From a virus, in IMG/VR virus record IMGVR_UViG_3300035670_000105, positions 1-64,000 of that record: 64,000 nt of DNA. One strand, written 5' to 3'. Position numbers and translations under genes: made by a program. How positions within the stretch are numbered: the first letter of the stretch is position 1; each line of letters opens with the position of its first letter. Positions 5,574 through 47,353 of this stretch are shown one piece after another. The notes beneath the pieces are model-generated. The model searched no databases and was not told where the DNA came from. It saw only the letters and a list, made by a program, of their open reading frames with translations.

Positions 5574-6206
5574 TCAGGCCACGTCTTTGTAGCTGCGCCC
5601 CTTGATCAGGCTACGAATCGAGGCTGGATCTACCCCGTGATCCCTGGCGATCTTGTAGATGGCTTCTCCGGCTGCGTGGCGTGCCCTGATGCTCTGAACA
5701 TGAGGGCGCAGCACACCCTGGTTGGGCTTGGGCTTGAACTGCTTGCTTGGCAGCTTGCCACTCCTGCTGTTGAAGGTGCCCATGGCTTGGACCTTGTAGA
5801 TCTCGATCAAGCGCTGCTCGACCCTTTCCGCATTGGCAAGGAAGGGCGTTTCAAAGATGACGAGTCCTTCCGTGCAGCCGTACTCAGCCAGCACTTTCTC
5901 AAGCCAGTCCAGGTGCTCCAGACGCCTTGGCTGCGCGAACAGCAGTGTCCTTGGCACCCAATTGCGCTCAAGCCAGGCCCGATGCAGGGGATTATTATCC
6001 CGCTGATCCACCTGCTGTGAGCGGCCTGGCCTTCCGCAGCCGACATAGTAGACACTCAGGCGGCCTTGGGTAGCGGACAGCATTTTCCACATTGCGTGGA
6101 CATAAACCTGTTTGCCTTTGCCGTCTAAGGCATAGATTCCAGCACTTGAAACACGACCAGCCATCAGCCGAGAAGCCAGGCTACGACTACCTTTTGGCCT
6201 TGCCAT
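5574..6206 (-). CDS. GIY-YIG-like endonuclease with C-terminal HTH (probable homing endonuclease)
   Basis: 210 residues. A GIY near residue 24 and a VYYVGCG near residue 52 resemble the GIY...YVG pair of the GIY-YIG nuclease fold. They are followed by an Arg-containing segment and a later AERVEQRLIEIY that could supply the catalytic Glu. The last 45 residues (IRARHAAGEAIYKIARDHGV onward) look like a helix-turn-helix, as in phage homing endonucleases and recombinase tails. The gene stands alone between opposite-facing units and is bracketed by an exact 15-bp repeat. That fits a mobile gene or an autoregulated one. The family call is moderate because the spacing of the GIY and YVG motifs is longer than usual. 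Confidence 0.5.
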   Translation of the reverse strand: MARPKGSRSLASRLMAGRVSSAGIYALDGKGKQVYVHAMWKMLSATQGRLSVYYVGCGRPGRSQQVDQRDNNPLHRAWLERNWVPRTLLFAQPRRLEHLDWLEKVLAEYGCTEGLVIFETPFLANAERVEQRLIEIYKVQAMGTFNSRSGKLPSKQFKPKPNQGVLRPHVQSIRARHAAGEAIYKIARDHGVDPASIRSLIKGRSYKDVA

Positions 6207-6221
6207 AGTACGCTAGTACCC

Positions 6222-6236
6222 CCTCGCGTGCGCGTG
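6222..6236 (+). repeat. 15-bp direct repeat, right copy
   Basis: CCTCGCGTGCGCGTG, 16 nt upstream of the endonuclease start at 6206; same orientation as the copy at 5537. Confidence 0.7.
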
Positions 6237-6350
6237 CAATTTGCATCATATACCGACCCTACGTTCCTCTACCCTCCCCCCTTCGGGGACACTCCACGAA
6301 AAAACCCCTCCCCGGGGGCCTTTGTTTTATGTCCAACGCAACAGGCAACC

Positions 6351-6641
6351 ATGCCACGCGCAGTCAAGTCCACCACCAAGACCGCCAAGACCAGCACCGT
6401 CGACCAGCCGCGTATCTCTATCGGAACAGCCTGGGAAACTCGCAACGAGTCCTTTTTCGCAGGCCGACTGAAGCCAGCCGATGGCCGGTACGCCAACCAG
6501 GAGGAGCTGATGCGACTCCTACCAGCCCCCAGTGAGGGCCACCACTGGGCCCTCAAGCTGTTCGTCCGCGAGGTTGGCACCGGCCAAACCGTCGTAGATG
6601 TCATTCTCCAACAGGAGGAGGACTACCAACCCGAGGCCTAA
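6351..6641 (+). CDS. Hypothetical early protein, 96 aa
   Basis: Start ATG at 6351 follows a CCCTCCCCGGGGGCC stem and a short leader. The N-terminus is Lys/Thr rich (basic, probably disordered). The remainder is a compact mixed sequence with acidic QQEEDYQPEA at the end. No family recognised. A strong terminator follows 20 nt after the stop, so it is a single-gene unit. Confidence 0.6.
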   Translation: MPRAVKSTTKTAKTSTVDQPRISIGTAWETRNESFFAGRLKPADGRYANQEELMRLLPAPSEGHHWALKLFVREVGTGQTVVDVILQQEEDYQPEA

Positions 6642-6660
6642 GCCACGGCCTCACTTCATC

Positions 6661-6688
6661 ACGCCCCTTCGGGGGCGTTTTTTCTTTT
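6661..6688 (+). terminator. Rho-independent terminator after 96-aa gene
   Basis: ACGCCCC TTCG GGGGCGT followed by TTTTTCTTTT: a classic stable tetraloop stem with a T-tract. Confidence 0.9.
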
Positions 6689-6788
6689 GTACCTGCGTAG
6701 CGGCTTCGCCGCTACTGCAGTCACATCAGTCCCTTTCCGTGGTGGCCCACCACAGAAACGCGCTGCGGCACCCAATTCCGCAGCACGC

Positions 6789-6880
6789 ACCACCACCGTT
6801 CCACCGTACCCACCACCACCGTTCCACCGTGCCCACCACCACCGTTCCACCGTGCCCACCACCACCGTTCCACCGTGCCC
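6789..6880 (+). repeat. Four tandem 23-bp repeats
   Basis: Four head-to-tail 23-bp units of the form (ACC)3-GTTCCACCGTGCCC; the first has A for G at one position, and a decayed fifth copy follows to about 6902. The period is not a multiple of three, so it is not a coding repeat. Confidence 0.85.
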
Positions 6881-6904
6881 ACCACCAACGCACCAACCAC
6901 CAAC

Positions 6905-6947
6905 GCACTCACGCACACTCGCACTCACGCATCTCAAGCACTCACGC
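6905..6947 (+). repeat. Three copies of GCACTCACGC
   Basis: Exact 10-mers at 6905, 6921 and 6938, spaced 16-17 bp, immediately right of the 23-bp repeats. Confidence 0.7.
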
Positions 6948-7340
6948 CCGAAAGCACTAAAGGCTCCTTTGGTGAAAGCCGACAGGCTGCAAGGCACTAC
7001 GGGACGCTCTGCTTTCGCTGCGTCGCAGTGGCTTCACACCACATCACGGGAGCACGAGTGCTTTGATTTCTTGCGTATGTGCGTACCCACGCTCTGCTAT
7101 GTCAGTGCTATTCAATTCACAGGGCAACACCTTTGCCCGTTCTCAATAACACCCCCATCGCAATTTTTATCTGCGAGGGGTAATTCCCCACAAACTAGCC
7201 CCGCATCCGCTTCATTCGCAACCCCCTCACCTCAACCCATCACCAATCTCCTGTGTATTCCAACCCCCACATAACAGGCTGGCTCCTCCCACCCCCTCTC
7301 CCCGGGGGCCATTGGCTGGTGAACCATTCATCAATCAGCC

Positions 7341-7514
7341 ATGGATCGCATCAACTCACTCACATCATCTGAACGCTTCAACATCCACAGCGTTCGGTTC
7401 TACTGGCCGCTCTTCGGCCACTACGTCTCCGTCTCCAAGCGAGACGGTAGCTCCACACATCTCCTCACCATCGAGGAAGCACACCACCTCCTCGCTTCAC
7501 TCATCAACCAATGA
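7341..7514 (+). CDS. Hypothetical small protein, 57 aa
   Basis: ATG at 7341, stop at 7512-7514. The sequence resembles a small compact domain (aromatic-rich FNIHSVRFYWPLFGHYVSV, then an EEAHHLLASLI helix). The stop codon overlaps the left arm of the following conserved hairpin. Family unknown. Confidence 0.55.
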   Translation: MDRINSLTSSERFNIHSVRFYWPLFGHYVSVSKRDGSSTHLLTIEEAHHLLASLINQ

Positions 7515-7559
7515 GGCACCCAGCAGGCTCCCTCCCCGGGGGCCTTGCATTGGTGCCTC
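7513..7559 (+). promoter_or_regulatory. Conserved hairpin H1 (core plus paired outer stem)
   Basis: Outer arms GAGGCACC and GGTGCCTC pair around the core GGCTCCCTCCCCGGGGGCC at 7526-7544. The downstream start is at 7580. There is only a TTG after the core, not a T-tract. See the family described under findings. Confidence 0.65.
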
Positions 7560-7579
7560 TCAGGCAATCGCCATCAGCT

Positions 7580-7837
7580 ATGTCCACATCCAAACCCCAC
7601 ATCAACATCTCCCTGGAACGAGCGCTTCGCTATGCGCTCTACAAGGCCGTCTACAACGAGGACTCCATCTCCTTCTGGGTTGCCCTCAGAGATAACGATG
7701 TCATCACCGGCTTTGACGACGATGACAACGAAATCCTCAACCTGGAAGGACTAACAACCAGCCTCAGCATCGAAGTCATGCACTTCATTGATGAGCCGAT
7801 GCACGAGCTTCGCCTCCTCCCGCTCTTCCCATCCTGA
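7580..7837 (+). CDS. Hypothetical acidic protein, 85 aa
   Basis: ATG at 7580, about 20 nt beyond hairpin H1. An acidic loop FDDDDNEILNLEGL lies mid-protein and a hydrophobic C-terminus ends LLPLFPS. Single-gene unit between two hairpins of the same family. Function not recognised. Confidence 0.55.
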   Translation: MSTSKPHINISLERALRYALYKAVYNEDSISFWVALRDNDVITGFDDDDNEILNLEGLTTSLSIEVMHFIDEPMHELRLLPLFPS

Positions 7838-9139: not shown

Positions 9140-9655
9140 ATGAAGCGCCTCCTCACCACAATCTGCGCTCTCAGCGCAACTCTCCTCCCCACCGCCGCAC
9201 TTGCCAACCCCTCGGAAGCCTGGTTCCGATGGGCTGGTCAGATGGCAGCTCGCAGTGGTGTCCGCATCGACATCCGCAGCGACTGCCCTCGCACCCGCGC
9301 CGGTGGTTACATCCTCTCCACCCGCACCATCCAACTCTGCCAGGGCGCCATCTCCAATGGCCCGGCCTTCCTGGCTGAAACCCTCGCTCACGAGGCCGTT
9401 CACGCCGCTCAACACTGCGTTGGCCTTCACACCGGCAGCAACGACATGGTGCCCATCGGCCAGCTGCTCGCAGCTCACGGCCAAGGCACCCAGCTGCTGG
9501 AGATGGCCACACGCACCATCGCCACCAAGCGCCACAACATCACGGGCTCAACCCGTGGTGATTCACGCCTTCTGCTCATCGAAGCAGAGGCCTACGCCCT
9601 GGAAGATCACCCCACCCAGGCCATCCAGGTGATGGAAGCTGCCTGCCGGCGCTGA
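9140..9655 (+). CDS. Secreted HExxH metallopeptidase-like protein
   Basis: 171 residues. Residues 1-22 are a signal peptide (MKRLLTTICALSATLLPTAALA). The zinc motif HEAVH is at 84-88, followed by AQHC. A Glu-rich helix LIEAEAYALED near 145-155 could supply the third ligand. Cysteines at about 49, 67, 92 and 169 could form periplasmic disulfides. Such proteins would act in the periplasm or cell envelope. It lies in the early region behind a small membrane peptide, with conserved hairpin 9665-9702 after it. The substrate is not evident; a role in envelope modification or superinfection exclusion is possible but inferred. Confidence 0.6.
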   Translation: MKRLLTTICALSATLLPTAALANPSEAWFRWAGQMAARSGVRIDIRSDCPRTRAGGYILSTRTIQLCQGAISNGPAFLAETLAHEAVHAAQHCVGLHTGSNDMVPIGQLLAAHGQGTQLLEMATRTIATKRHNITGSTRGDSRLLLIEAEAYALEDHPTQAIQVMEAACRR

Positions 9656-11920: not shown

Positions 11921-12217
11921 ATGGGCCTCTTCAACTTCAACTTCTCCTCCACCATCACCTCCACCACCGCCACTGCTGATACCAGCAATACCCCTCAGGT
12001 GGTGGAACTGCAACTCAATGAGGAGCGCGTCACCGTCCCGATGACTGAAGCCGAAGGCAAGACCATCGCGCAACTGTTCGCCAGCTACAGCGGTGACTTG
12101 GGTGACATCAGCCGCATCAGCCGCTTCGTGGCTGCTGGCCGCATCGTGGATGCCGACAGCACCCCGGAAGCCGGCGTCGTCTACCGCGGCGCCATCAGCT
12201 CCGAATCCAAGGGCTGA
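11921..12217 (+). CDS. Ubiquitin-like (beta-grasp) protein, PRTRC protein C-like
   Basis: 98 residues from ATG 11921. After a Ser/Thr-rich N-terminal tail (1-25) the order looks like a beta-grasp fold: strand VVELQLN, strand RVTVPMT, helix TIAQLFASYSGDLG, strand RISRFVAAGRIV, strand GVVYRGAIS. It ends in a single Gly (SESKG), not the usual GlyGly. The next genes encode a JAMM peptidase, an E2-like/Cys-rich protein and a ThiF/E1, the partner set of ubiquitin-like conjugation or processing. It has its own hairpin leader and its own terminator, so it may be made in excess over the enzymes. The fold is inferred from sequence pattern and context. Confidence 0.6.
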   Translation: MGLFNFNFSSTITSTTATADTSNTPQVVELQLNEERVTVPMTEAEGKTIAQLFASYSGDLGDISRISRFVAAGRIVDADSTPEAGVVYRGAISSESKG

Positions 12218-12241
12218 ACCCCATCCATCCCTGCAACCCCT

Positions 12242-12269
12242 GCGCCCCACTACGGGGCGCTTTTTCTTT
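12242..12269 (+). terminator. Terminator after Ubl gene
   Basis: GCGCCCC-ACTA-CGGGGCGC then TTTTTCTTT. Confidence 0.9.
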
Positions 12270-12284
12270 CCTCACGCCACTCCG

Positions 12285-13334
12285 ATGACTGAACCATCCA
12301 CTTCCGAGCTGCTCCGCACCGCCCGCCACGGCTGCTGGCAGCTCAAACGCAACGCCTGGGGCCAATTCCTGGCACCCACCGATGACCCCCTGGCCAATGT
12401 GGTGCTCTCTGATGAGCAGCTGCAGGGCTTTGAACTCAACGAGGGCATTGCCCCGATTCCAGCGGATCTTTGGAGCCGCTGGGTCAAGCTCTGCTTCCAC
12501 TTTGTCCAGGCCCGCACCAGCAACTTGGAGGTGTCCTGCCGTCTCCTGCGGCATGAAACCGACAAGAGCCAATGGCGCATCCTGGTGCCCCCGCAAGAAG
12601 TCAGCAGCGGCTCGGTCCGCGCTGAATCCTTCGATGGCTCGATCGACATCACCACCGGTGAGGTGATCGAGCAGTGGCCCCCTGATGGCTGGATCCCCTG
12701 CGGCTCCAGCCACAGCCACAACACAATGGCCGCTTTCTTCAGCGGCACCGATAACGAGTACGAGCTGGGCGACCCCGGCTTGCACATTGTCGTCGGCTCG
12801 ATCTCCCTGGCGGCCCGCAACTACACCTACAAGGCGTCGATCACCGCCAACGGCCGCCGGTTCCTGATTGATCTGCCCCTCGTGGCGGATCTCACCCCCA
12901 CCACCGATGACTTCCACCCGGATGTCCTCAAGGTGGTGGAGCTGAAAACCTGGCGGCCTGCTGCAGTCCACGCCCAGCAGTGGACCCGCTCAGCTGGCTT
13001 CACCGATCCCAACGCCGGCAACGGCTACTACCGCCGGCCATCTAGCACACCCCTCAGCGGACGGCTGGATGACGACTGGGATCCGGACTGGGATACCACC
13101 CGGTTCCCCAGCTACGAGAAGAGCACTTTCGGCGAAATCAACACCGCCGATGTGGAAGAGCAGATCAACTGGTTGATCCGCGATGCCTTCTCCATGGGCC
13201 AGGACGCCCACCTGCTTGCTGCCCTGGACCATCTCCGTGAATCCATCGACTTCAAGATCGATGAAATCGTGTCGCTGGATGCGGCGCTTGACGCCAATGA
13301 AGAACTCACCACCTCCCCCTCGCAACAGCCATGA
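12285..13334 (+). CDS. JAMM/MPN+ metallopeptidase (deubiquitinase-like)
   Basis: 349 residues from ATG 12285. The JAMM motif H-x-H-x7-S-x-x-D is present in full: H143, H145, S153, D156 in SHSHNTMAAFFSGTD, followed by a PGLHIVVG strand typical of JAB-domain proteins. The upstream Glu is probably among E119-E133 but cannot be fixed by eye. The C-terminal part (from about 200) is variable and acidic. JAMM peptidases cleave isopeptide or C-terminal extensions of ubiquitin-like proteins, so the Ubl at 11921 is the likely substrate. The stop overlaps the next ATG (ATGA), indicating coupled translation. Confidence 0.75.
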   Translation: MTEPSTSELLRTARHGCWQLKRNAWGQFLAPTDDPLANVVLSDEQLQGFELNEGIAPIPADLWSRWVKLCFHFVQARTSNLEVSCRLLRHETDKSQWRILVPPQEVSSGSVRAESFDGSIDITTGEVIEQWPPDGWIPCGSSHSHNTMAAFFSGTDNEYELGDPGLHIVVGSISLAARNYTYKASITANGRRFLIDLPLVADLTPTTDDFHPDVLKVVELKTWRPAAVHAQQWTRSAGFTDPNAGNGYYRRPSSTPLSGRLDDDWDPDWDTTRFPSYEKSTFGEINTADVEEQINWLIRDAFSMGQDAHLLAALDHLRESIDFKIDEIVSLDAALDANEELTTSPSQQP

Positions 13335-14623
13335 CCAATCCCTTCTCCCCCCAGCAGCCGCCACGGCTGCATGTCGAACCTCTGCCCACCGGTGCGCTGG
13401 CTGCTGCAGCCGAGCGCCTCACTCACGACAATGGCCAGCCGGTGCTGGACATCAGCGTCTGGCTGCCGAATGAGTGGGCTACCAATGAAGCCCGCGACCG
13501 CAACGGCCGTCGCGTCCACATCGGTGCCACCCACATCGGTGCCACCCGCAGGGTGCCTTCCGAAGACGCCACCGAAGAAGCCTTTGCCTGTTTTGAGCGG
13601 GATGTCTGCTTCAACTGCCGGTACTACTGCACCGACCGTGACCTGGACTGGGACGACGTCGACGACATGGAATGGAATGACGGCGATGGCAACTACTGGC
13701 GACTCAGTGGTGCCACCGCCGACAGCCCCTGTCCTTGCCACCGCGATGGCATCGATGAAGTCAACTGGCCCTGCACGGCCGGCCACGACGAACCTGACCC
13801 CTCGGACTACGAAGACGAAGACGAGGACGAGGACGAGGACGGCGAAGACACTGGTGAAACCATCAATGACGGACTGCTTCACCTCGGCCCGACACGGTTC
13901 ACCACCCGCCGCTACCTCAGCGGTGCCTGTTACACCTACCTCGGCCTACCTCAGCGCTATGAGTTCACCGCTCACCTGCAAAAACTGAGCATCACCGGTG
14001 ACGCCTTCAGCGTCGCCTACACCCGCCGAATGGCGAACACCTTTGACCCCAACCAGACCGTCTGCTGGGGCAATGGCAACACCGTGCCCCAGTCCCTGGA
14101 GGAGGCGGCGGCGGCCTACGCCCAGGCCAATGCCAACGACGACCTCCTCAACGTGCACACCGCTGCACATAACTGCCGGCTAGCAGCAGAGGATCCCACC
14201 CCCTATGAGCTAAACAAGCTCGCCATCGCCCTGCCGCCCACGGCCGATGAAGAGCGCCTGGCCCTCGTGGTGGCCGATGCCGCCACGATGCCCGACGCCT
14301 TCCTGCTGCTGGCGGCTAGCGGTGCTACCACCGGCGATGGCCTCGCCATCGCTGCCGCCCAGTGGGTGAACGCCCTGCCATTGCCCAATGGCCAGCAGTT
14401 CACCGGCTGGGCCACCGCGCCCCTGGCTGGTGGCTGCAGCTGGCTGATCGGCCAGACCGCTGCCACCGGCACAACAGCAGCTCGCTTTGTACTGCTCGGT
14501 CAGCACAACCTCCAATCCCCCACCCCCTCACCTCTTCCAATCCCATGCGACTCGCACGCACTCTCGTCATCGGCTGCGGCGGCACCGGCGGACACCTCGT
14601 CCCTGCCCTTGCCCGTCTGCTGA
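13331..14623 (+). CDS. E2-like / cysteine-rich partner protein of the Ubl system (tentative)
   Basis: 430 residues. Three parts are visible. Residues 90-155 hold Cys/His pairs (C93, C96, C100, C134, C136, H137, C148, H152) that could bind zinc. Residues 155-180 are a long Asp/Glu tract. Residues 195-290 contain FDPNQTVCWGNG with C245; the pattern of an Asn, a valine-Cys-Trp/Leu-Gly and a following proline recalls the catalytic Cys of E2-like PRTRC protein B. It lies between JAMM and E1 genes with overlaps at both ends; the last 79 nt overlap the E1 start in another frame and encode low-complexity Pro/Ser. The E2 assignment needs profile searching. Confidence 0.4.
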   Translation: MTNPFSPQQPPRLHVEPLPTGALAAAAERLTHDNGQPVLDISVWLPNEWATNEARDRNGRRVHIGATHIGATRRVPSEDATEEAFACFERDVCFNCRYYCTDRDLDWDDVDDMEWNDGDGNYWRLSGATADSPCPCHRDGIDEVNWPCTAGHDEPDPSDYEDEDEDEDEDGEDTGETINDGLLHLGPTRFTTRRYLSGACYTYLGLPQRYEFTAHLQKLSITGDAFSVAYTRRMANTFDPNQTVCWGNGNTVPQSLEEAAAAYAQANANDDLLNVHTAAHNCRLAAEDPTPYELNKLAIALPPTADEERLALVVADAATMPDAFLLLAASGATTGDGLAIAAAQWVNALPLPNGQQFTGWATAPLAGGCSWLIGQTAATGTTAARFVLLGQHNLQSPTPSPLPIPCDSHALSSSAAAAPADTSSLPLPVC

Positions 14624-15267
14624 ACTACCACGCAGCTACCGCGCCGATGGGCGATCGCCATCCCGTCACCGTGATCGACGGTGACACCTTTGAAGAACAC
14701 AACATCAGCCGGCAGCACATCGGCGTTGACCAGATCGGCGTCAACAAAGCCGACTGGCTCGCCGCCCTCTGCCAGCAGCAGGGGCTGCCGGTGGACTCTG
14801 TCCCCAGCTACCTGGACAAGGCGCTGCTGCGCAAGCTGCTGCGCCGTGACGCCAGCCCTGTCCTGCTGGTGGCGGCCGTCGACAACGACGCCACCCGCAA
14901 GCTGTGCATCGATGTGCTGGAAGAATCCAGCCGGGACTTCCTCTTCATCACACCCGGCAATGCCGGCGCGGAGGATCCCGATGCCGCCATCCGCGGCAAT
15001 GTGCTCTGGTATGGCCGCCAGGGGGATGAGGCGATTGGCCTCAACCCCGCCCTGGTGTTCCCAAACATCGAGGAACCCCAGGACGCCATCCCCCGTGAGG
15101 GCAGCTGCGCCACCCAGGCACCATCCTCCCCGCAGTTGATCACAGCCAATGTGCTGGCCGCGGCCTACACGCTCACCGTCCTGCAGAACCTGCTGGATGG
15201 AGCGATCAACACGACCGCGAGCAGCGTCTTCTTCAACGGCCGGCGTTTTGCGCTCTCGGCCTCCTGA
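14545..15267 (+). CDS. ThiF/E1-like adenylating enzyme (PRTRC ThiF-type)
   Basis: 240 residues. N-terminal nucleotide-binding loop VIGCGGTGGHL (8-18), then VIDGDTFEEHNISRQ (about 44-58) with the acidic strand end and Arg typical of E1/MoeB/ThiF enzymes, and a later VAAVDND. A Cys in REGSCATQAPS (about 191) with following LITANVLAAAY matches the C-terminal Cys region of ThiF-like proteins. E1-like enzymes adenylate the C-terminal Gly of a Ubl. Short length fits phage/plasmid ThiF proteins, not ThiF-rhodanese fusions. Last enzyme of the cluster. Confidence 0.75.
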   Translation: MRLARTLVIGCGGTGGHLVPALARLLNYHAATAPMGDRHPVTVIDGDTFEEHNISRQHIGVDQIGVNKADWLAALCQQQGLPVDSVPSYLDKALLRKLLRRDASPVLLVAAVDNDATRKLCIDVLEESSRDFLFITPGNAGAEDPDAAIRGNVLWYGRQGDEAIGLNPALVFPNIEEPQDAIPREGSCATQAPSSPQLITANVLAAAYTLTVLQNLLDGAINTTASSVFFNGRRFALSAS

Positions 15268-15305: not shown

Positions 15306-15887
15306 ATGACTTCAACCCTTTCCAATCCGCTCACGCCTGATGCCATCCAACTGGGCGACACCATCGTCCAGCTGCAAAGCCTTGTCGAGGCCTATGGCAC
15401 CGTGCTCAACCAGGCCAAGCAGCAGCTGGAGCAGCTGGAGCTGACTCCCGAGCAACTGCGCCGCGTGGAAGAGCGGGCGCATCAAAACATCAACCTGCAG
15501 CGTCTTGCTTGCACACTGGTCAATCAATTCGACGTCAGCAGCTCTGTCGGCACCGACCAGCAAAGAGCCTTTGACGCGCTGCTGGATACCATCGTGCGCC
15601 GCGTCACCAACCGCATCGCCGATGCAACCCTCGCTCGCTTCCGCGATGAAATCCGAGGCCTCGTCGACACCGCCATAGAAGAAGCCCAGGACAGATTCAA
15701 GCTTCAGACTGATTCCTATTTCAACCGCGTTCAAGACCGCCAACTCTCCAACCTCCGAGCTGACAACGATGAAATGCGTAGAACACTACGCCGTGTCCTC
15801 AGTCAAGCCTTCGCTCCAGAAGAGCTAAACGGAATGGCCGTTATCGCCATTCAAGAAGAACCCACCACCAATGAGGTGAACGCATGA
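15306..15887 (+). CDS. Coiled-coil protein, 193 aa
   Basis: ATG 15306, 38 nt after the E1 gene. Heptad-like helices (QAKQQLEQLELTPEQLRRVEE; later EEAQDRFKLQTDSYFNRVQD). Its codon use is slightly more A/T rich toward the 3' end. ATGA overlap with the next gene. It could be part of the Ubl operon; no family recognised. Confidence 0.55.
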   Translation: MTSTLSNPLTPDAIQLGDTIVQLQSLVEAYGTVLNQAKQQLEQLELTPEQLRRVEERAHQNINLQRLACTLVNQFDVSSSVGTDQQRAFDALLDTIVRRVTNRIADATLARFRDEIRGLVDTAIEEAQDRFKLQTDSYFNRVQDRQLSNLRADNDEMRRTLRRVLSQAFAPEELNGMAVIAIQEEPTTNEVNA

Positions 15888-20779: not shown

Positions 20780-20960
20780 CGATGCGCCGATTCTGATTGG
20801 CATGGCGATCCTGCTGTTCCTCGGCATCGGAACGATGGCTGGTCTGGTGTGGATCACCAACAACTTGGTGCAGCAAGTGAAGCGAATTGACGGCGAGAGC
20901 AAGCAAGCACTGGAGCGTTCAACAGAAACGCTGCGCCAATGCACCGAGCAGCTCAGGTAG
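20748..20960 (+). CDS. Single-pass membrane protein, 70 aa
   Basis: GTG 20748 is chosen because TACCCTT lies 20 nt upstream; ATG 20802 is the alternative. One helix (IGMAILLFLGIGTMAGLVWI) and a polar helical tail (VKRIDGESKQALERSTETLRQ). Overlaps the zinc-ribbon gene by 32 nt in another frame. Function unknown. Confidence 0.45.
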   Translation: MNWDRRQSGHDDAPILIGMAILLFLGIGTMAGLVWITNNLVQQVKRIDGESKQALERSTETLRQCTEQLR

Positions 20961-20982
20961 CCCCTCCCCGGGGGCCTTGAGC
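20951..20982 (+). promoter_or_regulatory. Conserved hairpin H5, upstream of ArdC gene
   Basis: Outer arms GCTCAgG / CCtTGAGC enclose TAGCCCCTCCCCGGGGG; includes the preceding stop codon TAG. ATG of the next gene is 22 nt downstream. Confidence 0.65.
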
Positions 20983-21003
20983 AACTGCCTTTCATCTCAG
21001 GCA

Positions 21004-21972
21004 ATGGCAACTGCAACCAAGGCTTCACGCAAACGAAAGACTGAAGGCCCCACACCAGAAGAGAAGCTCGTCGCCGGGCTGATCGAACTGCTGGAAGCTG
21101 GCGTCAACCCGTGGCAACGGGACTGGCGCGGCACCAGCCTGGGGCAACATCGCAACCTGATCTCCAGCGAGCCGTATCACGGCGGCAACCCTGCCCTGCT
21201 GGAGATGCAACTGGCGATGCGCGGCAGTGAACTGCCGCTCTGGGCTGGCCACGGCCAGGCCAAGAGCAAGGACTGGTACCCACGCAAGGGCAGCCGCGGC
21301 TGCTACATCGTGCGGCCCCAGCTCAACCGCTACGAGGAACTCGATGAGGGCGGCAAGCCCGTGCTCAACGAGCAGGGGGAAGCGCAACTACGGCAATGGA
21401 CATCGTTCAAGCCGGTGTGCGTCTTCAATGCCGCTGATCTGGAAGGGGAGGGCCTGGCCGAGGCGATTGCCGCGGCCATCGGCACCCCCGAGCAGCGGCA
21501 GGAGCCGGAGATCCTGCAGCAGGCAGAAGCGGTGCTGGGCGCCTGGTGCGTTCCTGTCACCTATGGCGGTAACAGCGCGTTCTATTCGCCCATGGCGGAT
21601 CGGATCACGCTGCCGCCACGGCATCAATTCCTCAGCGGCCCTGGCTTCTACGCCACCTGGGCGCATGAGGCGGTTCATAGCACGGGGCATGGCGATCGCC
21701 TGGCCCGTGACGGGATTGTGCACTTCGCGGGGCGCGCTTCCGAGAGCTACGCAAAGGAAGAGCTGATTGCTGAGCTGGGCGCCTTCCTACTGGGCGTGCG
21801 GCTGGAAATCGGCAGTGCCGTAGAGAACCACGCGGCCTACCTGGGCTCGTGGATTGCTGCGCTCAAAGCCCAGCCCAAGACGCTGCTGCAATCGCTGAGC
21901 GCAGCGACGAAAGCAGCCAACTTGATCCACCCCGAAACCATCACCCCGGCACCAGCCGGTGAAGACCAATGA
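21004..21972 (+). CDS. ardC: ArdC-like antirestriction protein
   Basis: 322 residues from ATG 21004. The N-terminal half has the ArdC ssDNA-binding pattern (helix, GVNPWQRDW, SSEPYHGGN, then a TxKQ-type region and KGSRGCYIVRP). The C-terminal half has the zincin motif HEAVH at 221-225 followed by STGHGDRL and an EELIAELGAFLL helix. ArdC proteins of plasmids and phages protect incoming single-stranded or double-stranded DNA from restriction. Early position and a conserved leader hairpin fit expression soon after infection. ATGA overlap links it to the next gene. Confidence 0.8.
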   Translation: MATATKASRKRKTEGPTPEEKLVAGLIELLEAGVNPWQRDWRGTSLGQHRNLISSEPYHGGNPALLEMQLAMRGSELPLWAGHGQAKSKDWYPRKGSRGCYIVRPQLNRYEELDEGGKPVLNEQGEAQLRQWTSFKPVCVFNAADLEGEGLAEAIAAAIGTPEQRQEPEILQQAEAVLGAWCVPVTYGGNSAFYSPMADRITLPPRHQFLSGPGFYATWAHEAVHSTGHGDRLARDGIVHFAGRASESYAKEELIAELGAFLLGVRLEIGSAVENHAAYLGSWIAALKAQPKTLLQSLSAATKAANLIHPETITPAPAGEDQ

Positions 21973-45004: not shown

Positions 45005-45750
45005 TCACTGACGCCGACTTCCAGGTTCTCGCCGCCAACAATCGCGTTCCAGCGCTTGACCTCGCTCAGGTCTTCAGTGCTGGCGAACGCCAGAAACGAA
45101 TTGACAGCTGGATGACTCAGCTGGAGCAACTCGGCGTCCTGACCGGCTACGACCGCAACGTGCTTCAGCAGTGGCAAGATGCCGGCTATCCAGGTGCACG
45201 CCCCCAGCTGTCGATCGAGATCAACGCTCCCTACAGAGAACAGGACGAAGAAAAGCAACAGACCGCTGCTCAGCGACTAATTCGACAAGAGCAGCGCATG
45301 CTTGACGAATGGCTTAGACATGGGCAATTACGCACCGAAGTAGAACAAGAACAGCGCCTGCTGCGGCACTACCCCATCTCTTATCCCGCTTTCATCCGGC
45401 GTCAACAGGAACTGGAGCAAGCTCGCAAGGAAGCACTTCGCGCCCAACTCATCGCCGACCGCGAACGTCAAAAAGCTGAACAACTGGAAAGAGAAGCGCT
45501 TGAGTCCCTCAAGCGGCAAATGGAAGAAGATCGCAGGCAGCTCACCGCAAGGGTCGAGGCTTACGTCGAAGACCCGCTGGGCAGCACCTTCGACCTGACC
45601 GAAGGCGAGTTCACCCACTGGTGCGACGAGATCGCCACCCCTGAGCAACTGGATGCGCTCACCAATGCCTTGGCAGCCCGTGGCCGCTACAACGCGCTGC
45701 CACCCTGGCAGCGCTGGTTGCTCACGCGCCTTGCTCCCTTACTCGCCTAG
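45001..45750 (+). CDS. Coiled-coil protein, 249 aa
   Basis: ATG 45001. Residues 90-195 are a long charged coiled coil (RRQQELEQARKEALRAQLIA, LERE...RRQLTARVEAY). The C-terminal domain (FTHWCDEIATPEQLDALTNAL) is compact. Convergent with the integrase, with a 4-bp stop overlap. Function unknown. Confidence 0.55.
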   Translation: MITDADFQVLAANNRVPALDLAQVFSAGERQKRIDSWMTQLEQLGVLTGYDRNVLQQWQDAGYPGARPQLSIEINAPYREQDEEKQQTAAQRLIRQEQRMLDEWLRHGQLRTEVEQEQRLLRHYPISYPAFIRRQQELEQARKEALRAQLIADRERQKAEQLEREALESLKRQMEEDRRQLTARVEAYVEDPLGSTFDLTEGEFTHWCDEIATPEQLDALTNALAARGRYNALPPWQRWLLTRLAPLLA

Positions 45751-47096
45751 TCGCTGCTCCCGCCCGAACCCAGCAGCTGCTGCAGTGCTGCCATCTGCAA
45801 CCGCAACTGCTCCAGCTCCTGCCTCTCCCCATCAGCCAACACATCACGCCGCGCTGCGTCAAACTGCTGCTGCTGGTGGCGGCGCATTCGACCTGGCGGC
45901 AGCCATCGCAGGTAGATGCGCTGATGCACCTCCCAGCTGTGCCCAAGCCATGCCGCTTGCTGCTCTGGATCCACGCCGGCCGTCTCAGCACTGGTGGCGC
46001 AGCGGATCGCATAGCTGTGCCGCAAGTCATACGGCCGCAGCCAATCCACACCCTCTCCCTCCGCCACTGGCGCCACCAATCGCTGCACGCCGCGCAGGGT
46101 GAACTGCTTGCGCAGGTACTGACCCAACTCAGCATTGTTCACCGGAATCATCACTCCGCCGCGCTGCTCCCATCTGATCGGCCAACGCTCCAGCAACTGG
46201 CCGCGGCGCCAGGGCCATTGCTCCGCCAGTCGGTAGCGCTGCAGCCAGCGGCCTGGCACCGGCGGCGCAAAGTGCGCCCTGGCGGATTTGGTGCGCATCT
46301 CACCCGGGATCGTCACCCATCCCCTCGCATCCACCCCCTCGATGTGCCACAGCTCATGCGGGCGGATGCCATAGGTGGCTGCCACGGCGAACACCCACTG
46401 GTTGAAGCCGTCCAACCCATCCAGCCATGCCTCGATCGCGCTGTCGCTGGGCACCAGCCGCACCCGTAGCCCCTGGGCTGCAGCCAGTCGCACCGCCGCA
46501 CCTCGCGGCCGGCGATTGCGCAGCTCGGCCAGCACTGGCGGCAGAGCCAGCTCAGGCGCAACCCGATCGATCCAGCTGAGCACTTCCAGCCTGCGGTTGT
46601 AACTGCGCCGCTGCTCCAACGGATCCACCTGCCGGGCCCATTCACCCAGGGCCTGCGCCGATGGCACGCCCTGGAGCTGGGCGATCCGCAGCCGCAGATC
46701 GTTGAGCAGATGCACCCGGCTGCCCTGCTTCGGGATCGCCTTGATCACCTCCGCACTCACCTGCTCCGCCAGCACCTGCCAGCTGCTGCCGCCACTGGAG
46801 CGCTGCTGAGGCCGTGGCTGCGGCCAGCCCTTCTGCTTCACCGCCAGCAGGCACAGCTCCGCCGCGGCCGTGATGTCCTCGCTGCGATCACAGCGCAGGG
46901 GGGCCAACGAGAACCGCTCCACCGTCATCCCCACCTCCATCCGCCGCACCCAGAGATGGGGCGAATCGCGGCGGCGCCACAACCGCCAGGGGCTGCCGGC
47001 CGCCTGTAACCGGCGCAGCGCCAGTAACCAGTGCGCCTCCACCTCCCCATCACCCCATCCCGCCTGTCTTGCCTGTGATGACGGATGAGACGACAT
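45747..47096 (-). CDS. int: Tyrosine recombinase (phage integrase)
   Basis: 449 residues from ATG 47096. Catalytic residues in order: R245 in TYGIRPHELW, R359 in RPYDLRHSYAIR, H386 in WLGHSWEVHQRIY and nucleophile Y395. The first His of the usual HxxR is Tyr356, a variant also found in some integrases. The N-terminal 150 residues contain arm/core-binding helices. The C-terminal 50 residues form a Gln/Arg helix. It would integrate the phage at a host tRNA gene through the attP just upstream of its start. Several repeats beside attP look like its arm sites. Confidence 0.85.
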   Translation of the reverse strand: MSSHPSSQARQAGWGDGEVEAHWLLALRRLQAAGSPWRLWRRRDSPHLWVRRMEVGMTVERFSLAPLRCDRSEDITAAAELCLLAVKQKGWPQPRPQQRSSGGSSWQVLAEQVSAEVIKAIPKQGSRVHLLNDLRLRIAQLQGVPSAQALGEWARQVDPLEQRRSYNRRLEVLSWIDRVAPELALPPVLAELRNRRPRGAAVRLAAAQGLRVRLVPSDSAIEAWLDGLDGFNQWVFAVAATYGIRPHELWHIEGVDARGWVTIPGEMRTKSARAHFAPPVPGRWLQRYRLAEQWPWRRGQLLERWPIRWEQRGGVMIPVNNAELGQYLRKQFTLRGVQRLVAPVAEGEGVDWLRPYDLRHSYAIRCATSAETAGVDPEQQAAWLGHSWEVHQRIYLRWLPPGRMRRHQQQQFDAARRDVLADGERQELEQLRLQMAALQQLLGSGGSSD

Positions 47097-47100
47097 TCCA

Positions 47101-47119
47101 TGCACGCTGGCGTGCACGA
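47101..47119 (+). promoter_or_regulatory. Candidate integrase ar-type site pair (left): inverted TGCACG
   Basis: TGCACG-CTGG-CGTGCA followed by CG. It lies just upstream of the integrase start, about 120 bp from the att core. Same hexamers recur at 47327. Confidence 0.4.
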
Positions 47120-47203
47120 ATCCTGCCGCATCCGGTCCATCTCTGTCCCTGTCTGTCACCCGTTGGACAGGCGGGAAGATCGGTGAGACGCCAGTGCTGG
47201 CCA

Positions 47204-47231
47204 ATAAAAAACCCCGCCGGAGCGGGGTTTG
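47204..47231 (-). terminator. Terminator beyond the tRNA-like att core
   Basis: On the minus strand AACCCCGC-TCCG-GCGGGGTT then TTTTATT. It lies directly after the tRNA 3' end, as a host tRNA terminator would, and is probably part of the captured att region. Confidence 0.75.
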
Positions 47232-47237
47232 TGAGAA

Positions 47238-47283
47238 TGGCTCGGGGGAGACTTGAACTCCCGACCTTGGGGTTATGAACCCA
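47238..47283 (-). other. attP: attP core: 3' part of a tRNA (CAT anticodon)
   Basis: On the minus strand: anticodon region with CAT (47277-47275), AAGGTC, a T-arm GGGAG-TTCAAGT-CTCCC and acceptor strand CCGAGCC followed by A. Only the anticodon-to-3' half is tRNA-like; the left anticodon stem does not pair well, as expected when phage sequence replaces the 5' half. Adjacent integrase supports attP. It would restore a host Met- or Ile-type tRNA on integration. Confidence 0.75.
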
Positions 47284-47326
47284 TCGACAAACCCCTGAGA
47301 AACCCCTGCTATCACAGGCTTCTCCA

Positions 47327-47353
47327 TGCACGCCCCGCAGGCTGCCGTGCACG
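47327..47353 (+). promoter_or_regulatory. Candidate integrase arm-type site pair (right)
   Basis: TGCACG at 47327-47332 and CGTGCACG at 47346-47353, about 45-70 bp from the att core on the side opposite the integrase gene. Confidence 0.4.

What the first reader, a model, noticed from the sequence alone, without database searches (positions are those of the whole stretch)
11921..15267. Ubiquitin-like system (Ubl, JAMM protease, E2-like/Cys-rich protein, ThiF/E1) in a phage early region
Seen: a 98-aa beta-grasp-like protein ending in Gly; a protein with the complete JAMM motif (H143, H145, S153, D156); a 430-aa protein with several Cys/His pairs and a VCWG site (C245); and a 240-aa E1-like enzyme with a Gly-rich nucleotide loop. 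The last three genes are translationally coupled by overlaps. Known: PRTRC cassettes of plasmids and mobile elements pair ThiF/E1, JAB/JAMM, E2-like and Ubl-like proteins, and bacterial Ubl systems are known to act in antiphage defence. Inference: the phage carries a complete processing/conjugation system that may modify its own virion or block a host defence. A single terminal Gly, the separate terminator after the Ubl gene and the large acidic E2-like protein are unusual.
Basis: partly seen in the sequence, partly recalled or inferred. Interest (0 to 1): 0.9.

Follow-up and report, generated by a model that had tools for sequence, protein, structure and literature searches.

The report
Phage-borne ubiquitin-like conjugation cassette
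This bacterial virus carries a five-gene kit that looks able to make a ubiquitin-like tag, attach it to proteins and remove it; the same kit, in the same order, occurs in a distinct family found only in viruses (often very large ones) in everything searched, so phages appear to own the kind of protein-tagging machinery that bacteria are known to use against phages.

Summary
Window 11921-15267 encodes a beta-grasp Ubl ending in Lys-Gly, a JAMM protease with all catalytic residues, an E2 of Prok-E2_D type (the 'Cys-rich' protein; C245 is its catalytic Cys) and a ThiF/E1. A fifth, helical-protein gene (15306-15887) belongs to the cassette. The record is a tailed phage distantly related to freshwater Synechococcus phage S-EIVl. 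The set recurs in 17 distinct viral lineages (21 contigs, up to 371 kb) that otherwise share almost no genes; their E1s form a 100/99-supported virus-only clade, with no close relative among 84,980 bacterial/archaeal species genomes. All 15 recovered Ubls end in KG plus 0-2 residues, as expected of JAMM-trimmed precursors. A hairpin after the Ubl gene is conserved in position but not in sequence. The E2s carry a four-Cys, zinc-like insert absent from plasmid homologues. Nearest kin: PRTRC plasmid cassettes and Iyer-2006 type '6d' operons; but ParB and proteins E/F were not found and the E2's downstream His is replaced. Verdict: a new, virus-specific variant of a known kind. Conjugation is strongly inferred, not shown; target and benefit are unknown. 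Caveat: AlphaFold/Foldseek did not recover an E2 fold.

The parts
11921..12217 (+). Ubl: ubiquitin-like beta-grasp modifier, 98 aa, C-terminus SESKG
   Evidence: AF2 topology two strands, helix, further strands, pLDDT 74.7; Foldseek hits SUMO/MoaD/TGS/ubiquitin with prob 0.85-1.00 but E 0.009-0.05; homologue in 17 of 19 viral records; KG end in 15/15
12242..12269 (+). intrinsic-terminator-like hairpin (GCGCCCC-ACTAC-GGGGCGC + TTTTTCTTT) between Ubl and the enzyme genes
   Evidence: a stem-loop lies in the same gap in the other lineages inspected, with unrelated sequence
12285..13334 (+). JAMM/JAB metalloprotease with N-terminal JAB-N-like domain (invariant R11, W25); E82, H143, H145, S153, D156
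   Evidence: Prok-JAB 3.6e-4; PRTRC_A 1.2e-4; invariants in 16 homologues; hhalign to PRTRC_A plus cyanobacterial A 95.5%
13331..14623 (+). E2-like conjugating enzyme (Prok-E2_D type): N236, catalytic C245 (VCWG), N269-x-D271-L; insert C93xxC96...C134...C148
   Evidence: orthologues match PF14460 Prok-E2_D up to 1.9e-8; hhalign to PRTRC_B plus cyanobacterial B 95.6% with the Cys motif aligned; residue table
14545..15267 (+). ThiF/E1-like Ubl-activating enzyme, 240 aa: GxGGTGG, D45, NxxRQ, K68, D113, C188
   Evidence: ThiF Pfam 2.3e-8 over cut-off; PRTRC_ThiF 3.6e-15; tree
15306..15887 (+). fifth cassette gene: 193-aa, probably helical/coiled-coil protein, rapidly diverging C-terminally
   Evidence: homologue found near E1 in 11 of 12 lineages of the window's sub-clade, directly downstream in most

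Best explanation
The cassette encodes an autonomous, phage-owned ubiquitin-like conjugation pathway. The Ubl is made in excess from its own cistron before a terminator (inferred from anatomy). Where residues follow the conserved Lys-Gly, JAMM trims them (inferred); in this phage the gene already ends at Gly. ThiF/E1 adenylates the terminal Gly and takes it up as a thioester on C188 (inferred from invariant motifs). The Ubl passes to C245 of the E2-like protein, which transfers it to lysines of target proteins; the four-Cys insert and the fifth helical protein probably choose the target, since no separate E3 is encoded (inferred). JAMM also removes the tag. It most likely acts early in infection on host or early phage proteins: it lies among early/replication-type genes (ArdC, primase/helicase-like), away from the tail and packaging genes.
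For: Protein families: ThiF 2.3e-8, PRTRC_ThiF 3.6e-15, Prok-JAB 3.6e-4, PRTRC_A 1.2e-4; Prok-E2_D in orthologues at 1.9e-8, 3.6e-7, 2.8e-6, 9.1e-6. E2 signature N-x(7-17)-C-x-G ... F-N-x-D-L: N and C in 25/25, second N and D in 24/25, in the order and roughly the spacing of the HPN...C...PNxDDP motif of classical E2s (own knowledge). Ubl beta-grasp model; KG + 0-2 residues in 15/15. Enzymes and modifier kept together in 17 lineages that share almost nothing else. Virus-only E1 clade of 17, support 100/99. Purifying selection on every gene tested. Hairpin after Ubl kept in position. Conjugation through a single terminal Gly is shown for CBASS Cap2/cGAS (PMC10097602).
Against: Foldseek found no E2 fold for the AF2 model of the 430-aa protein in the PDB or viral library (mean pLDDT 68, Cys insert < 50), and the window's own copy has no direct Pfam hit. 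The Ubl has no significant sequence match to PRTRC_C (hhalign 1.6%) or Pfam. No target, no expression and no biochemistry is known. Early timing is inferred only from gene location.
Confidence: 0.7

Rival explanations
1. It is a Ubl conjugation system, but its role is counter-defence or superinfection exclusion: it tags a host defence protein, or virion parts of competing phages, as the bacterial Bil system tags the central tail fibre.
For: Bacterial Ubl conjugation acts against phages (Bil, cited in PMC11364771; CBASS Cap2, PMC10097602). The cassette is accessory: no match in the related cyanophage S-EIVl and present in phages that share little else. An anti-restriction ArdC gene lies about 6 kb away.
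Against: No match to PADLOC defence models beyond the generic E1 domain. No target is identifiable; no toxin or effector gene is in the cassette.
Confidence: 0.35
2. It modifies the phage's own virion or replication proteins, for example to regulate assembly or DNA replication.
For: Two cassette genes of Salmonella phage Arash are labelled 'structural protein' in the record (basis of the label unknown). PRTRC relatives sit beside replication and partition genes such as dnaN and ParB, and an SSB gene lies upstream in a cyanobacterial plasmid.
Against: In the window and the other viral loci the neighbours are mostly early-type genes (HNH, helicases, Gp157, RecA), and no structural gene travels with the cassette.
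Confidence: 0.25
3. It is a sulfur-carrier system: Ubl as a ThiS/MoaD/CysO-like thiocarboxylate donor, E1 as adenylyltransferase and JAMM as the release hydrolase, with the Cys-rich protein as the sulfur acceptor.
For: ThiF, MoaD and ThiS are among the nearest folds and families; JAB proteins occur in sulfur-carrier operons (PMC1779556).
Against: The fourth protein is Prok-E2_D-like with an E2-type active site and a fixed place in the operon. Sulfur carriers typically end in GG (own knowledge), not KG. No rhodanese or sulfur-metabolism partner was seen in the cassettes.
Confidence: 0.1
4. It is a plasmid-maintenance (PRTRC) cassette and these elements are phage-plasmids that use it for replication or partition.
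For: E1 and JAMM are closest to PRTRC models; bridging phage cassettes encode PRTRC_C-like Ubls.
Against: No ParB in any of 19 viral records and no ParA-type match over the cut-off, while the controls ring; proteins E and F were not recognised; gene order differs.
Confidence: 0.08

Closest known systems
PRTRC system cassettes of plasmids (NCBIfam TIGR03735 A, TIGR03736 ThiF, TIGR03737 B, TIGR03738 C, with ParB, E and F)
   Same: Homologous E1 (3.6e-15), JAMM (1.2e-4; hhalign 95.5%) and E2 (hhalign 95.6% when cyanobacterial B is included); small Ubl ending in KG as PRTRC_C ends in TKG; compact operon on mobile elements.
   Different: On phages; no ParB, no recognisable E or F; E2 and JAMM order swapped; E2 has a four-Cys insert and lacks the SHPN histidine; a helical fifth gene downstream; all scores are far below PRTRC curated cut-offs; Ubl sequence unrelated by profile.
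Iyer, Burroughs and Aravind 2006 operon type 6d (Ubl, JAB with JAB-N, E1, E2-like, alpha-helical protein; PMC1779556)
   Same: Same five kinds of part: Ubl with C-terminal Gly, JAB with N-terminal domain with conserved Arg and Trp, standalone E1, standalone E2 with conserved Cys, a helical protein.
   Different: 6d was reported from bacteria, not phages; its E2 has an absolutely conserved downstream His that is Asn/Asp here; homology of the helical protein is not established.
Phage lambda/T1 tail-assembly Ubl (TAPI) and JAB (TAPK)
   Same: Ubl and JAB in phages.
   Different: No E1 or E2, a tail-gene context and fused NlpC/P60; not this system.
Bil, CBASS Cap2/Cap3 and 6A-MBL antiphage systems
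   Same: E1 + E2 + JAB (+ Ubl or target) mechanism; a single terminal Gly suffices for Cap2.
   Different: Bacterial defence systems; E1-E2 often fused; E1 similarity only at general E1 level (6A-MBL 1.5e-7, BilD 0.035).
PRTRC-like cassettes in phage isolates: Salmonella phage Arash, Vibrio phages D69/D181/D148, Bacillus phage KLEB27-3
   Same: E2-JAMM-E1 in a row; Arash also has a 66-aa Ubl-like ORF ending GTKG.
   Different: Plasmid-like E2-JAMM-E1 order, no four-Cys insert, short Ubl where found; outside the window's clade.

Membership tests
PRTRC system | ThiF protein of TIGR03736 type | tested here: inconclusive
   Best NCBIfam hit, 3.6e-15, but 56 bits against a cut-off of 144.75: homologous, not an equivalog
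PRTRC system | Protein A (JAB, TIGR03735) | tested here: inconclusive
   1.2e-4, 21.7 bits against a cut-off of 101.8; hhalign 95.5% with PRTRC_A plus cyanobacterial A
PRTRC system | Protein B (E2-like) | tested here: inconclusive
   hhalign 95.6% with PRTRC_B plus cyanobacterial B, 39% with three PRTRC_B alone; Prok-E2_D in orthologues
PRTRC system | Protein C (Ubl, TIGR03738) | tested here: inconclusive
   Similar fold and KG end, but no profile match; bridging phage loci L058 and L056 match TIGR03738 at 3.7e-4 and 7.6e-3, below cut-off
PRTRC system | ParB-family protein | tested here: not met
   No ParB_N in any of 19 viral records; controls ring in 10 of 14; several records are fragments
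PRTRC system | Proteins E and F | tested here: not met
   No NCBIfam hit for the window's cassette or neighbouring proteins; the helical protein does not align to E or F
Iyer 2006 type 6d operon | Small beta-grasp protein with conserved C-terminal Gly | tested here: met
Iyer 2006 type 6d operon | JAB with N-terminal domain with strictly conserved Arg and Trp | tested here: met
   R11 and W25 invariant in 16 sequences; that these are the very residues of 6d was not checked residue by residue
Iyer 2006 type 6d operon | E2-like protein with conserved Cys | tested here: met
   C245 in 25/25; Prok-E2_D
Iyer 2006 type 6d operon | Absolutely conserved His downstream of the E2 Cys | tested here: not met
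   F-N-x-D-L replaces the S-H-P-N of PRTRC_B
[quoted passage not shown]
   A presumed helical fifth gene is present, but homology to the 6d protein was not testable
Functional Ubl conjugation system | Covalent Ubl-target conjugates | not testable with these tools
   Needs biochemistry or mass spectrometry

The most novel reading that the evidence does not exclude
A virus-specific Ubl conjugation lineage in which the E2 has acquired a built-in zinc module and acts as a combined E2-E3, letting phages tag host or phage proteins during infection with their own ubiquitin-like modifier: the mirror image of bacterial Ubl-based antiphage defence.
Probability: 0.45. Interest if true: 0.9.

Novelty: new variant of a known kind. 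Interest (0 to 1): 0.77.

Why it matters
Ubl conjugation in bacteria is known chiefly as a weapon against phages (CBASS Cap2, Bil). A complete Ubl-JAMM-E2-E1 kit conserved in a virus-only clade would mean that phages use protein tagging themselves, giving a new class of host-takeover or counter-defence tool and a new minimal ubiquitin-like system. PRTRC/6d systems have been predicted since 2006; I found no paper in the open library that assigns them a function, and phage versions, some with relatives in cultured isolates, would make the question testable. The library lacks most subscription papers, so priority is not certain.

Tried and rejected
Chance ORFs or a misread gene: rejected by conservation in 17 lineages, invariant catalytic residues and dN/dS of 0.06-0.21. 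Host contamination: rejected; the record has terminase, tail, virion and endolysin genes. Unrelated neighbours: rejected; the order is kept while almost nothing else is shared. A PRTRC system in the strict sense: not filed as such (ParB absent, E/F unrecognised, E2 His absent). Lambda-type tail Ubl/JAB: rejected (E1 and E2 present, no tail context). Led nowhere: Foldseek of the E2 model in the PDB and viral libraries gave only noise; sequence searches of the PDB gave no relative of E1, JAMM or E2; hhalign of Ubl against PRTRC_C and of the helical protein against PRTRC C/E/F; Pfam portal search of the viral records; paper searches for PRTRC or complete Ubl systems in phages. The iterated-profile E-values include their own hits and are used only to locate genes, not as evidence of homology.
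Full report
WHAT IS THERE. The four ORFs lie at the stated coordinates with the stated residues: Ubl 11921-12217, JAMM 12285-13334, Cys-rich protein 13331-14623, ThiF/E1 14545-15267. JAMM and the Cys-rich gene overlap by 4 nt (ATGA) and the Cys-rich and E1 genes by 79 nt. A 7-bp all-GC hairpin with a T-rich tail separates the Ubl from the enzymes. A fifth gene, 15306-15887, belongs to the set.

THE VIRUS. The window is part of a 90,162-bp IMG/VR record with a terminase large subunit (phrog_38, 4.9e-73), a virion structural protein (1.8e-161), tail fibre and tail proteins and an endolysin. The terminase and the virion protein are closest to Synechococcus phage S-EIVl from an arctic lake, at 48% and 47% identity, so a picocyanobacterial host is likely (inference). 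Neither E1 nor JAMM finds a match in S-EIVl, so the cassette is accessory. It lies on the + strand with ArdC and a primase/helicase-like gene, apart from the tail and packaging genes on the - strand.

E1 AND JAMM. E1: ThiF Pfam 2.3e-8, above the cut-off; best NCBIfam match PRTRC_ThiF, 3.6e-15 but below its cut-off. In 25 homologues GxGG, D45, N53-xx-R56-Q57, K68, D113, R118 and C188 are invariant, that is, the adenylation site and one candidate thioester Cys. JAMM: Prok-JAB 3.6e-4 and PRTRC_A 1.2e-4; in 16 viral sequences E82, H143, H145, S153 and D156 are invariant, as are R11 and W25 of the N-terminal domain. Profile comparison to PRTRC_A plus cyanobacterial A gives 95.5% over most of the protein.

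E2. The window's Cys-rich protein has no direct Pfam hit, but its orthologues in the same operon match Prok-E2_D (PF14460): L058 1.9e-8, L056 3.6e-7, L054 2.8e-6 and L043 9.1e-6, all over the cut-off. Profile comparison of 18 viral sequences with PRTRC_B plus cyanobacterial B gives 95.6%, aligning NTFDPNQTVCWG with NVWEDGKVCTG. Asn236 and Cys245 are present in 25/25 and the downstream N-x-D in 24/25; order and spacing resemble HPN...C...PNxDDP of classical E2s (own knowledge). PRTRC_B has S-H-P-N where the phage proteins have F-N-x-D-L. All E2s of the virus clade except L042 have a CxxC...C...C set (C93, C96, C134, C148) that the outgroup E2s lack: a likely zinc site (inference). Against: the AlphaFold model (mean pLDDT 68, insert < 50) found no E2 in the PDB or the viral library. 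The E2 assignment therefore rests on sequence profiles, motif and synteny.

UBL. AlphaFold predicts two strands, a helix, then further strands, with a disordered tail. Foldseek's top hits are SUMO, MoaD, TGS and ubiquitin, mostly with probability above 0.9 but E-values of only 0.009-0.05. In 15 of 15 homologues the chain ends in Lys-Gly followed by 0, 1 or 2 residues (none, F, S, A, RH, LG, VY). A fixed Gly with a short variable tail is what a JAMM-processed precursor would show. PRTRC_C proteins end in TKG, AKG or TKA, but no profile match links the two. One C-terminal Gly is enough for CBASS Cap2 conjugation (PMC10097602).

GENE ORDER AND RELATIVES. Viral scans found the cassette in 17 distinct lineages including the window (21 contigs, 40-371 kb). 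Apart from the cassette, the window's ORFs match only about two genes in the cassette regions of 15 of these viruses. The Ubl was found in 17 of the 19 records searched; the other two, L056 and L058, carry short ORFs ending GSKG and GTKG that match PRTRC_C weakly. The order is Ubl-JAMM-E2-E1(-helical) in the window's sub-clade; Ubl-Ubl-E2-JAMM-E1 in L042; and Ubl-E2-JAMM-E2-E1 in L054/L055. The last looks like an intermediate between the plasmid order (B-A-ThiF) and the phage order, through E2 duplication and loss (inference). A hairpin lies between Ubl and JAMM in the gaps shown whole (W, L002, L003, L029, L004, L008, L038, L039, L032), although the sequences are unrelated. It would give more Ubl than enzymes (inference).

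TREE AND DISTRIBUTION. A maximum-likelihood tree of 63 E1s puts the window in a 17-row all-virus clade with 100/99 support on a long stem; the 12 rows of the window's sub-clade have 100/94. Deeper joins are weaker and several long branches meet. A scan of 84,980 bacterial and archaeal species genomes with the JAMM alignment returned only distant relatives, E no better than 2e-8, mostly in Bacillota, one on a named plasmid. The clade is thus virus-specific within what was searched; the scan is pattern-seeded and could miss some. In a close pair (L054/L055) all genes show dN/dS of 0.06-0.21.

CULTURED RELATIVES. Salmonella phage Arash, Vibrio phages D69/D181/D148 and Bacillus phage KLEB27-3 carry E2-JAMM-E1 runs of the PRTRC-like type. 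In Arash a 66-aa ORF upstream ends RRTGTKG. They lie outside the window's clade but can be tested now.

WHAT IT IS NOT. Not PRTRC in the strict sense: no ParB in 19 records, no ParA-type match over the cut-off, E and F not recognised, scores far below the curated cut-offs. Closest by parts list is operon type 6d of Iyer et al. 2006 (PMC1779556), whose E2 has a conserved downstream His that is absent here. No PADLOC defence model beyond generic E1 domains matched.

HOW IT MOST LIKELY WORKS. Shown by sequence: the parts, their catalytic residues, conservation and linkage. Inferred: trimming by JAMM, Gly adenylation and thioester on C188, transfer to C245, conjugation to lysines with target choice by the Cys insert and helical protein, and removal by JAMM. 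The biological role is open; host takeover or counter-defence in early infection is my first choice and self-modification the second.

LITERATURE. No paper in the open-access library was found that describes a complete Ubl/E1/E2/JAMM system in phages. Subscription papers and preprints were not available.

Noticed in passing
L015:3071-4615 (-) and records G001, G002, G005: Terminase genes of three relatives show in-frame stops between matched segments, and the S-EIVl terminase match spans 2430 nt for 473 aa: probably an intron or similar insert in this terminase lineage.
   Followed up: no
L042:4355-4636, 5814-6110 and 6321-7832: A 371-kb viral contig has two Ubl genes before E2-JAMM-E1, and its E2 lacks the four-cysteine set: possibly the ancestral arrangement.
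   Followed up: partly
L054:3171-4730 and 5954-6895; L055 likewise: Two E2 paralogues flank the JAMM gene; the larger (520 aa) evolves faster (dN/dS 0.21, amino acid identity 0.85).
   Followed up: partly
L020:107-4539 (Salmonella phage Arash gp251-gp246): A cultured phage with a PRTRC-like Ubl (ends GTKG), E2, JAMM (PRTRC_A 1.8e-21) and E1; E1 and E2 are labelled 'structural protein' in the record.
   Followed up: partly
window 9140-9655: Possibly secreted small protein with a SprT/M76-like metallopeptidase motif (LAHEAVH); phrog_16003 1.6e-9.
   Followed up: no
window 20887-21972: ArdC-type anti-restriction protein with zincin-like metallopeptidase domain (1.5e-32), near the cassette; an ArdC-like gene also lies near the ThiF of a Thermoanaerobacterium plasmid.
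   Followed up: no
window 45747-47327 (-): 526-aa protein with a weak integrase match (phrog_1, 2.5e-8) but no PF00589 hit: lifestyle uncertain.
   Followed up: partly
L009, L010, L011, L012 and L023: Other phage and plasmid ThiF proteins form separate clades without a detected Ubl/E2/JAMM set; not examined.
   Followed up: no
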